From positions 1 through 64,000 of the forward strand of contig JAJYGP010000071.1 of the NCBI GenBank assembly GCA_021785035.1: a stretch of 64,000 bases of DNA, in the 5' to 3' direction. Position numbers and translations under genes: made by a program. Positions 20,459 to 22,651 of the stretch are shown piece by piece. The stretch is from Pseudomonadota bacterium (GTDB lineage: Bacteria; Pseudomonadota; Gammaproteobacteria; Acidiferrobacterales; Acidiferrobacteraceae). The notes beneath the pieces are model-generated. The model saw only the letters and a list, made by a program, of their open reading frames with translations. It ran no database searches and was not told the origin of the DNA. Position 1 is the first letter of the stretch, and every line of letters begins with the position of its first letter.

Positions 20459-20509
20459 AGGAGGATGGCGTTGGCGCACAGAAGACCCTAATTGCCGTAT
20501 GATGACGGG

Positions 20510-21886
20510 ATGCGCATTCTTCTCATTAGCCCGTACGAACTCGGTCGTCAGCCATTTTCTTTGGCACATCCAGCGGCGCTTCTGCGGGCCTGCGGACACA
20601 GTGTGGTCCTGGCCGACCTCACCTTGCGATCGATGCCATGGGAAACCCTGGCCCAGTTTGATCTTATCGGCATCGCGCTTGGTATGCATACCGCGACCCG
20701 CATTGCGATCAGTCTTTTGCCTAGAATGCGCACCAAGGCCCCCGCCGCTCGGCTTGTATGTTACGGCCTTTATGGGCCCCCAAACGCCGAAACCCTAAAA
20801 AATTACGGCGTGGATGAGGTGCTGGGCCCCGAGTTTGAAAGCGAACTGTTGGGGCTTTTGGCCCACCCCGAAACGCCTGCGGGGGTATCTGCGCGGGTCC
20901 GGTTCGTGGTTCCGGATCGCGCCGGATTGCCGGCCTTAAGCGGTTATGCCCACCTCATACTTCCTGGAGGCGCGCGCAAAACGGTAGGCTTTGTCGAGGC
21001 CTCGCGGGGCTGTAAGTACCTCTGCCGCCACTGCCCCATTGTGCCGGTATACGAAGGCCGCTTCCGCGCCGTCCCGCCCGAGGTCGTCATTGCTGACGCC
21101 GCACAACAGATTGCGCAGGGGGCCACCCACCTATCGTTTGGGGATCCGGATTTTTTGAACGGGCCGACCCACGCCCTCAGGATACTGAAGGCCGTACACG
21201 AAAACTGGCCGACCGTAACCTTCGACGCCACAGTCAAGATATCGCACATCCTGGCCTACGAAGACCTCATGCCGCGCCTCTCTAAGTACGGCTGCCTGTT
21301 TCTTACAAGCGCTGCGGAATCATTTGACGACAGGGTGCTCGGGCTTCTCGACAAAGGACATACCGCCCAAGATATCGCCCGGGCCGTACATATTACCCGG
21401 GCATCCGGCATAGCGCTCACCCCCACCTTCGTACCCTTCACCCCGTGGACAACGCTCGAGACCTACCTTGAACTTCTGATCCGTGTACGCGACCTCGCCT
21501 TGATCAGTAGCATCACGCCGATCCAGCTCGTCATTCGCCTGCTCGTGCCAGAGGGGTCCTATCTTTTTCGGATTCCTGGTTTTCGAGAACGGGTCGGCGG
21601 ATTTTCGGGGGAGATGTTGGGGTATCCGTGGACCCATACCGACCCGCGCGTCGACGCCCTACAAAACCAAGCCCAACGCTGGGTCGAGAAGAGCGAGGCC
21701 GAAGGGCGAGGGCGCTTTGAGACATTCAGCGGGCTTTGGTCGTTGGCGCACGAGTCGCTAGGACGAGAGGCGCCGGCACTCACAGGCGAGCAGGCCGGGC
21801 CGACAAGCCCGCACCTTTCGGAGCCCTGGTATTGTTGCGCGGAACCCACCGCGGCCCAGCTTGCGGGCTGCGCCGTAGGCGGCTAA
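20510..21886 (+). CDS. CUAEP/CCAEP-tail radical SAM protein (cysteine form)
   Basis: A 458-residue radical SAM protein with an N-terminal B12-binding-like alpha/beta domain (MRILLISPYELG onward). The cluster motif is CKYLCRHC (CX3CX2C) at residues 168-175. The C terminus carries EPWYCCAEPT, the tail that defines the CUAEP/CCAEP family. In some members the first Cys of that tail is selenocysteine. Here it is a TGT codon, so this is the cysteine form. The ATG at 20510 is chosen because the B12-like fold begins directly there. Function of the family is not known to me. A dienelactone hydrolase gene follows after 42 bases and may be linked. Confidence 0.85.
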   Translation: MRILLISPYELGRQPFSLAHPAALLRACGHSVVLADLTLRSMPWETLAQFDLIGIALGMHTATRIAISLLPRMRTKAPAARLVCYGLYGPPNAETLKNYGVDEVLGPEFESELLGLLAHPETPAGVSARVRFVVPDRAGLPALSGYAHLILPGGARKTVGFVEASRGCKYLCRHCPIVPVYEGRFRAVPPEVVIADAAQQIAQGATHLSFGDPDFLNGPTHALRILKAVHENWPTVTFDATVKISHILAYEDLMPRLSKYGCLFLTSAAESFDDRVLGLLDKGHTAQDIARAVHITRASGIALTPTFVPFTPWTTLETYLELLIRVRDLALISSITPIQLVIRLLVPEGSYLFRIPGFRERVGGFSGEMLGYPWTHTDPRVDALQNQAQRWVEKSEAEGRGRFETFSGLWSLAHESLGREAPALTGEQAGPTSPHLSEPWYCCAEPTAAQLAGCAVGG

Positions 21887-21928
21887 AGAGAGCGTTTTCT
21901 TAAAACACCACACCATCAAGGAGGGAGC

Positions 21929-22651
21929 GTGGACAATAAGAAGAGCGGCACCTTTATCGACGAGTCCGGAGTCAAAGGATATTTGGCGAAGCCGGCAGGC
22001 ACGCCGGCCCCCGTTGTTATCGTTTTTATGGAGATCTGGGGCATAAACGACCATATCCAGTACGTGTGCGAACACCTTGCCAAGATAGGCTTTGCGGCGT
22101 TCGGGCTCGACTTTTATGACGGGGCTGTTTTTTCGCCTAGCGACATAGAGGGGGCTATCGCGAAACTCAAATCGCTTGGCGATCAGGCGATTATGGCCTC
22201 CCTGGGGCGGGCCGTGGATCACCTAAAGACACGGACGGACGTGAGAGGACAGGGGATTGGCGTCATGGGCTTTTGTAATGGCGGGCGCCTCGCCTTCCTC
22301 GCCGCCAGCAGCTACCCGCGGGACATACGCGCGGCGGCCTGCTTTTACGGTGGGGGCATAGACAACCCTCAGGATCGCTTGGGGCGGACGTCCCTATTGG
22401 CCACAATCCCCCGGATCGAGGCCCCACTGCTGCTCTGTTACGGGGCCAAGGACGCCTCGATCACGCCCGAGGAGCATGGACGCATCAGCGCGGCCCTCAG
22501 CCAAGCGAACAAGCGCTACACGCTGAGCGTCTTCCCCAACGTGGGTCATGCGTTTATGGATCGGCCGGATCCCGCCGAAAAGGTGGCAACGGAGGAGGCC
22601 TGGCAGATGACAAGCCGCCTGTTCGCCGGTCTCAGGAGCGGGGGGCGCTAG
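21929..22651 (+). CDS. Dienelactone hydrolase family protein
   Basis: A 240-residue alpha/beta hydrolase of the DLH family. The nucleophile Cys is in MGFCNGGRLAF in place of the usual Ser motif. An acid is expected in CYGAKDASITP and the His is in NVGHAFMDRP, completing the Cys-Asp-His triad. The start is GTG, preceded by AAGGAGGGAGC, a very strong ribosome site that decides it. Family members open dienelactones in chloroaromatic degradation, but many act on other esters or lactones, and no aromatic pathway is nearby. The intergenic spacing of 42 bases from the CCAEP radical SAM gene allows co-transcription. It converges on yggX. Confidence 0.9.
   Translation: MDNKKSGTFIDESGVKGYLAKPAGTPAPVVIVFMEIWGINDHIQYVCEHLAKIGFAAFGLDFYDGAVFSPSDIEGAIAKLKSLGDQAIMASLGRAVDHLKTRTDVRGQGIGVMGFCNGGRLAFLAASSYPRDIRAAACFYGGGIDNPQDRLGRTSLLATIPRIEAPLLLCYGAKDASITPEEHGRISAALSQANKRYTLSVFPNVGHAFMDRPDPAEKVATEEAWQMTSRLFAGLRSGGR

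What the first reader, a model, noticed from the sequence alone, without database searches (positions are those of the whole stretch)
20510..22651. CCAEP-tail radical SAM protein beside a dienelactone hydrolase
The protein has a B12-like N-terminal domain, CX3CX2C cluster and EPWYCCAEPT near the C terminus. Relatives use selenocysteine at the first tail Cys, which suggests a redox or metal role for that tail. I know no reaction for this family. The closely spaced dienelactone hydrolase with a very strong ribosome site may act on its product.
Basis: partly seen in the sequence, partly recalled or inferred. Interest (0 to 1): 0.55.

Follow-up and report, generated by a model that had tools for sequence, protein, structure and literature searches.

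The report
ArsL-like radical SAM enzyme, cysteine tail
A bacterium's radical enzyme of an already named but unexplained family turns out to be the closest cousin of the enzyme that builds an arsenic antibiotic, and in many other bacteria it is inherited together with an amino-acid-joining enzyme rather than with the hydrolase that happens to sit beside it here.

Summary
The 458-aa protein (20510-21886, +) is a member of NCBIfam NF040546, "CUAEP/CCAEP-tail radical SAM (seleno)protein" (551 bits, cut-off 500), with CX3CX2C and the tail WYCCAEPT. Its sister family is ArsL, the arsinothricin enzyme, reported to move the aminocarboxypropyl (ACP) group of SAM onto arsenite. One correction: in the one Sec form I read, selenocysteine is at the second tail position, not the first.

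The dienelactone hydrolase (DLH) is a genus-level neighbour: adjacent in 10 of 12 same-genus loci, 0 of 9 loci of other genera, and 0 of 73 named loci outside the genus. The recurrent partner elsewhere is an ATP-grasp ligase close to L-amino acid ligases. In 300 genomes of one betaproteobacterial order it occurs in 22 of 23 with the radical SAM gene and 0 of 277 without. No such ligase was found in the window's own draft genome, and in its own order there is no association.

Most likely mechanism (inferred): ArsL-type ACP transfer to a soft acceptor at the Cys-Cys/Cys-Sec tail, giving an amino acid that the ligase, where present, joins to another. No arsenic context supports arsenite as acceptor.

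The parts
20510..21886 (+). CCAEP-tail radical SAM protein, 458 aa (ATG start; an in-frame TTG at 20492 would add 6 aa)
   Evidence: NF040546 1.6e-165, 551.4 bits against cut-off 500; PF04055 2.8e-11; only copy over the cut-off in the genome
20510..20878 (+). B12-domain-like Rossmann N-terminal domain (about residues 1-123)
   Evidence: predicted fold aligned to AprD4, OxsB, TsrM and, for residues 1-123, to 2-hydroxyisobutyryl-CoA mutase chain 4r3u_C; no Pfam B12-binding hit
21011..21034 (+). CX3CX2C radical SAM cluster motif, C168/C172/C175
   Evidence: invariant in A1 and A2
21818..21850 (+). C-terminal tail motif SEPWYCCAEPT, residues 437-447, vicinal C442/C443
   Evidence: TGA at the C443 position in Thermomicrobium
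21918..21928 (+). Shine-Dalgarno stretch AAGGAGGGAGC before the GTG of the hydrolase
21929..22651 (+). dienelactone hydrolase family protein, 240 aa, Cys116/Asp175/His207
   Evidence: PF01738 3.6e-45; best solved chain 3f67 7.5e-21; the three motifs kept in 9 of 9 same-genus copies read

Best explanation
The protein is a CUAEP/CCAEP-tail radical SAM enzyme, a sister of ArsL. Shown: family, sister relation, Fe-S motif, B12-domain-like N-terminal fold (predicted model), invariant Cys-Cys in the tail with Sec at the second Cys in one relative, and in one betaproteobacterial order near-perfect co-inheritance with an L-amino-acid-ligase-like ATP-grasp enzyme. [quoted passage not shown] The product would be a non-protein alpha-amino acid, which would explain why a dipeptide-type ligase is the usual partner. 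No such ligase was found in the window's draft genome, so there the amino acid may be used free or by another enzyme; the DLH is an accessory gained in this genus, perhaps for a lineage-specific ester or lactone step.
For: CUAEP and ArsL are each other's second-best curated family: window protein to NF040542 5.9e-68, 230 bits, next family 32 bits; ArsL of P. amygdali to NF040546 3.8e-100; T. roseum CUAEP to NF040542 7.5e-94. They share residues beyond the radical SAM core up to W374-x-H-x-D378-x3-D382-x-L384 and end near a Cys-Cys pair. ArsL's ACP chemistry: PMC8552651 (abstract and passages), restated in PMC12159101 (passages). Ligase partner: within 1.5 kb in 46 of 80 named loci; in 42 downstream on the same strand, in 39 of these 12-113 bases away, in several flanking contexts. 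Present in 22 of 23 genomes with the gene and 0 of 277 without in one order, the 23rd copy being cut by a contig end. The ligase profile is closest to L-amino acid ligase BL00235, 3e-61 over profile positions 49-405. ArsL clusters also carry an ATP-grasp gene in 9 of 10 plasmid loci read and in the one ArsL locus met in the order sample. Y441, C442 and C443 never vary in 60 rows.
Against: No chemistry was tested. The score against the ArsL model is far below its cut-off. Of 101 loci (some genomes twice, many with short flanks) searched with ten ArsL-cluster proteins only one (L097) hit, an ArsM-like gene. ArsM above cut-off is in 0 of 23 carriers against 14 of 277 others, and at 1e-30 in 4 of 23 against 37 of 277. 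In the window's own order the ligase is in 15 of 20 genomes with the gene and 16 of 21 without, so there is no association there (four of the 21 may be carriers with gaps: G003, G012, G017, G035); the window's genome and four other carriers lack it. The ligases beside ArsL are only 23-27% identical to those beside CUAEP and two from Pantoea show no LAL_C2 domain. The tail's place relative to the active site is unknown (no coordinates were returned).
Confidence: 0.38

Rival explanations
1. Ordinary 5'-deoxyadenosyl-radical enzyme of the AprD4 kind: it takes a hydrogen atom from a small substrate, and the Cys-Cys/Cys-Sec tail gives the hydrogen atom or electron back and is re-reduced through a disulfide or selenenylsulfide.
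For: Best solved fold is AprD4, Z 27.4, tied with OxsB at 27.1, and AprD4 is the closest solved sequence too. A vicinal Cys-Sec tail recalls the thioredoxin reductase tail (recalled, no call).
Against: By sequence ArsL is far closer than AprD4: 230 against 32 bits. A ligase partner for amino acids is not predicted by it.
Confidence: 0.3
2. Cobalamin-dependent radical SAM enzyme (methylase or like OxsB/TsrM) that uses the N-terminal domain to bind B12.
For: Z 24-27 to OxsB, TsrM and MgmA; weak matches to HpnR and other B12-type models.
Against: No B12-binding Pfam domain; AprD4 and MiaB-type enzymes, which I recall as B12-free, match too; the passages read on ArsL speak of a [4Fe-4S] cluster and not of B12.
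Confidence: 0.12
3. An arsenic enzyme: a second kind of ArsL that makes an organoarsenical.
For: Sister of ArsL with a Cys-Cys tail.
Against: ArsL-cluster genes almost never nearby (1 of 101 loci); no ArsM link in the order sample.
Confidence: 0.1
4. One reading: radical SAM enzyme and DLH form one pathway, the DLH acting on the enzyme's product.
For: Same strand, 42-base gap, strong ribosome site, no promoter- or terminator-like site in the gap; pair kept in 10 of 12 loci of the genus.
Against: DLH beside the gene in 0 of 9 and 0 of 73 loci outside the genus; two same-genus carriers, G004 and G013, have no DLH at E 1e-20; much of the region is syntenic anyway; a 44-46% identical DLH occurs in G015, which has no gene of the family.
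Confidence: 0.08

Closest known systems
NF040546 CUAEP/CCAEP-tail radical SAM (seleno)protein
   Same: Above the curated cut-off over nearly the whole length, conserved tail
   Different: Cys form, not Sec; the chain runs on past the end seen in 70 of 73 named proteins outside the genus; the ligase found in the betaproteobacterial order was not found in this genome
ArsL (NF040542, RCCLKC tail), arsinothricin biosynthesis
   Same: Sister family by score and alignment, CX3CX2C, C-terminal Cys-Cys; ATP-grasp gene in 9 of 10 plasmid clusters read
   Different: 229.9 bits against cut-off 450; tail WYCCAEPT not RCCLKC; no ArsL-cluster genes found in the window
AprD4 radical SAM diol dehydratase (6fd2)
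   Same: Same overall fold incl. B12-like N-terminal domain, Z 27.4, rmsd 3.4 over 396 residues
   Different: 19% identity; 32 bits against cut-off 500
L-amino acid ligase BL00235 (3vot), for the partner ligase
   Same: Nearly full-length profile match, 3e-61; ATP-grasp_4 and LAL_C2 domains
   Different: Partner was not found in the window's genome; substrate unknown
Dienelactone hydrolase family PF01738
   Same: 3.6e-45; Cys/Asp/His motifs present
   Different: Best solved relatives are proteins named only as dienelactone hydrolase or uncharacterized; substrate unknown

Membership tests
NF040546 CUAEP/CCAEP-tail radical SAM | whole-protein score above curated cut-off (500 bits) | tested here: met
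   551.4 bits, residues 3-452 on 1-467 of 468
NF040546 CUAEP/CCAEP-tail radical SAM | C[CU]AEP near the C terminus | tested here: met
   EPWYCCAEPT, residues 438-447
NF040546 CUAEP/CCAEP-tail radical SAM | CX3CX2C cluster motif | tested here: met
   C168, C172, C175
ArsL (NF040542) | score above curated cut-off (450 bits) | tested here: not met
   229.9 bits
ArsL (NF040542) | RCCLKC C terminus | tested here: not met
   tail is WYCCAEPT and ends CAVGG
ArsL (NF040542) | arsQ/arsM neighbourhood | tested here: not met
   no hit of ten ArsL-cluster proteins in the window
ArsL-like chemistry | ACP transfer from SAM | not testable with these tools
   needs an enzyme assay
Cobalamin radical SAM enzymes | B12-binding N-terminal domain | tested here: inconclusive
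   fold matches OxsB/TsrM and also AprD4; no Pfam B12 domain
AprD4 (NF033070) | score above curated cut-off (500 bits) | tested here: not met
   32.4 bits
Dienelactone hydrolase PF01738 | family score and Cys/Asp/His motifs (triad recalled) | tested here: met
   154.7 bits against 21; C116, D175, H207
L-amino acid ligase (partner in other genomes) | ATP-grasp_4 plus LAL_C2 domains | tested here: met
   both over cut-off in the two proteins scanned, L075 and L100; profile to BL00235 3e-61

The most novel reading that the evidence does not exclude
The CUAEP radical SAM enzyme and its ATP-grasp ligase are an undescribed two-gene pathway, mainly in Beta- and Gammaproteobacteria, that makes a dipeptide-like small molecule containing an ACP-derived non-protein amino acid with a carbon-heteroatom bond other than carbon-arsenic, the acceptor being held on a vicinal Cys-Cys or Cys-Sec tail; the window's genus keeps the first enzyme and mostly sets a hydrolase beside it instead.
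Probability: 0.25. Interest if true: 0.75.

Novelty: new variant of a known kind. Interest (0 to 1): 0.5.

Why it matters
The family has a curated name but no reaction that my searches could find. Placing it beside ArsL gives a testable reaction (ACP transfer), and the ligase that is co-inherited with it in one order gives a second enzyme to put in the same tube. Radical SAM enzymes that transfer ACP are few in the passages read: Dph2 and ArsL (PMC8552651; PMC11048331). A third such family, with 519 relatives among the stretches matched in one scan of 84,980 species genomes, would widen that chemistry.

Tried and rejected
DLH as family-wide partner: rejected as above. Co-loss of DLH and radical SAM gene in G003 and G012: not usable, because mutY, which is in the same block, rings in neither at 1e-40 (the tool warns that an empty answer without a control shows nothing), so the block may be missing from these drafts (85% and 77% complete). 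Selenium as substrate in this organism: SelD is below cut-off in all 14 genomes of the genus, the window's included, so no selenophosphate route is apparent. A SECIS-like hairpin after the TGA of the T. roseum gene: fold z-score -0.34, not supported; Rfam gave one match, a microRNA family far below its gathering score; Sec there rests on the alignment. Phylum-wide sample: 0 of 298 other genomes had the family at 1e-40, too sparse to test co-occurrence; hence the order sample. GDPD/GlpD as partner: behind the gene in some Gammaproteobacteria, divergent upstream in the window, not seen beside the gene in loci that have the gene-ligase pair. Conserved DUF971 neighbour (39 of 80 loci within 1.5 kb): probably a standing DUF971/ubiE pair into which the two genes were set (inference from L073, L084, L094, L116). 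Tail position in the model: could not be read, the tool gives no coordinates. The second structure job was not used.

Papers: PMC8552651, PMC13188914, PMC9312934, PMC11048331 and PMC12159101 were seen as passages only. Yao et al. 2024 on ArsL and the two Haft selenoprotein papers were seen only as reference entries; their look-ups failed, so I cannot say that they do not discuss this family.

Full report
What is there. The window (a 2.28 Mb draft genome, contig C84) holds a 458-aa radical SAM protein at 20510-21886 (+) and, 42 bases further, a 240-aa DLH-family protein at 21929-22651 (+). The first scores 551 bits against NCBIfam NF040546, cut-off 500, an existing curated family named for exactly this tail. 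It is the only gene over that cut-off in the genome. C168/C172/C175 form CX3CX2C; residues 437-447 read SEPWYCCAEPT. The genes around it (a Fe2+-trafficking protein here called yggX, mutY, an AsmA-family gene, thiG; upstream a GDPD-family gene and relatives of glpD and glpK) are ordinary (short names, and trmB, partly recalled).

The tail. In 60 aligned rows tail positions 438, 440-443 and 445-447 never vary. All 80 named loci kept by the scan have WYCC[AS]EPT; the scan pattern EPWYCCA biases this. Outside the genus, 70 of 73 named proteins end exactly 15 residues from that Trp and 67 of 73 end in Phe; the window's genus runs on a few residues. The only Sec member I could read, on the Thermomicrobium roseum plasmid, is annotated as ending at WFC, and the DNA goes on TGA GCG GAG CCG, that is C-U-A-E-P. 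So Sec takes the second Cys place there. No SECIS-like hairpin was supported, and the organism's Sec machinery was not checked. SelD is below cut-off in all 14 genomes of the window's genus, so the Cys form should work without selenium.

Fold. AlphaFold2 on 60 aligned sequences gave pLDDT 91.6, with the block 441-450 at 71. The best solved matches are AprD4 (Z 27.4), OxsB (27.1), MgmA (25.1) and TsrM (24.6). The N-terminal domain is thus B12-domain-like, but AprD4, which I recall as B12-free, shares it, so B12 binding is open.

Sister family. ArsL (NF040542) is second best for the window protein at 5.9e-68, and the relation is mutual. Alignment shows shared blocks beyond the radical SAM core and a Cys-Cys pair near the end of both, although over the tail itself the alignment is loose. 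For B. gladioli ArsL, expression in E. coli makes hydroxyarsinothricin from arsenite, and ACP transfer is proposed (PMC8552651, abstract and passages); later papers cite it as shown (passages). The window protein is not an ArsL: score, tail and neighbourhood all fail.

Neighbourhood. Within the genus, 12 loci hold the gene and 10 have the DLH 39-58 bases behind it (tblastn distances). None of 9 loci from other genera in the relatives search has it, nor any of 73 named loci outside the genus; 7 of these have under 800 bases downstream, and one (L103) has a 29% identical DLH 3.4 kb away. Seven of the 80 named loci (L061-L067) are from the same genus, and some others repeat genomes already counted. 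Among the 80 named loci an ATP-grasp gene lies within 1.5 kb in 46, or in 33 of the 48 with at least 2 kb on both sides; in 42 it is downstream on the same strand, in 39 of these 12-113 bases away. Of these 42, 32 stand behind a DUF971 gene, 3 behind a ubiE-like gene, 5 behind a thioredoxin-like gene and 2 behind none of these; in 3 more loci the order is erpA - ligase - radical SAM (ubiE, thioredoxin and erpA are labels by eye). In the tree of 59 ligases, 39 that stand beside the gene form one group with 100/100 support, apart from the erpA-linked ones, of which three (L070, L071, L075) also touch the gene. Distances and tree cover loci found through the radical SAM gene, and the unlinked ligases come from one order; the next test does not have that bias.

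Co-inheritance. In 300 genomes of the order of Thiobacillus denitrificans (G340), 24 match NF040546 at 1e-40, 23 above cut-off. The 24th, G553, is an ArsL: 56% identical to ArsL, RCCLKC tail, an ArsM relative next to it. The ligase query P0004 at 1e-40 rings in 22 genomes, all among the 23; at that limit the erpA-type ligase would ring too (1e-89 or better in four genomes). The 23rd (G597) has its gene cut by a contig end. 0 of 277 others ring. Fisher p is about 2e-32, not corrected for kinship. In 21 of the 22 the two genes are on one contig. In the window's own order this fails: with hits of E at most 1e-60 to the erpA-type ligase P0003, 15 of 20 carriers and 16 of 21 non-carriers have it, and the window's genome has none. 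So the ligase is a firm partner in that betaproteobacterial order, not in the window's lineage.

What the ligase is. ATP-grasp_4 and LAL_C2 domains; the profile finds L-amino acid ligase BL00235 at 3e-61 and BacD at 2.5e-21. ATP-grasp genes also stand within about 2.5 kb of ArsL in 9 of 10 plasmid loci read, of 16 ArsL plasmid hits; P. amygdali is the exception. G553 has one about 3.3 kb away. They are distant relatives (23-27% identity in the pairs compared), with LAL_C2 just below cut-off in two and not seen in two from Pantoea; the G553 one was scanned without its C-terminal part. An enzyme that puts ACP on an acceptor makes an alpha-amino acid, so an amino acid ligase is a natural follower in both cases. 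This is the main reason, besides sequence, to carry ArsL's chemistry over; it is inference.

Arsenic. Ten proteins of ArsL clusters found one hit in 101 loci. ArsM above cut-off is in 0 of 23 carriers against 14 of 277 others (Fisher p 0.61); at 1e-30 it is 4 of 23 against 37 of 277, a limit that does catch the ArsM relative beside G553's ArsL. The acceptor is therefore probably not arsenite, and remains unknown.

Verdict.

Noticed in passing
L153:8360-8380 (Thermomicrobium roseum plasmid NC_011961.1): The annotated CUAEP gene stops at WFC; the DNA continues TGA then AEP, so the record's protein seems cut short at a Sec codon.
   Followed up: partly
L155, L156, L160-L166 and L158 (ArsL clusters): ArsL clusters of Bacillota and Enterobacterales plasmids and of one genome of the order sample carry an ATP-grasp gene; arsinothricin may be built into a peptide.
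   Followed up: partly
L081, L133, L134 (and L109, L119, L135 with an ORF between): In some Gammaproteobacteria the radical SAM gene is followed on the same strand by gdpd and mostly glpD, the genes that lie upstream of it in the window.
   Followed up: no
L070, L071, L075, L042, L112, L136: A second ATP-grasp group stands next to an erpA-like gene, with or without the radical SAM gene nearby.
   Followed up: partly
L101 and L131, behind the radical SAM gene: The ATP-grasp gene gives two separate tblastn pieces, as if frame-shifted or split.
   Followed up: no
G598, G571, G514, G629: ArsM-like genes above cut-off with one in-frame TGA, possibly selenoprotein forms.
   Followed up: no
C termini of 73 named loci outside the genus: 70 of 73 proteins end exactly 15 residues from the tail Trp and 67 of 73 end in Phe, as if the free C terminus mattered; the window's genus has a longer end.
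   Followed up: partly
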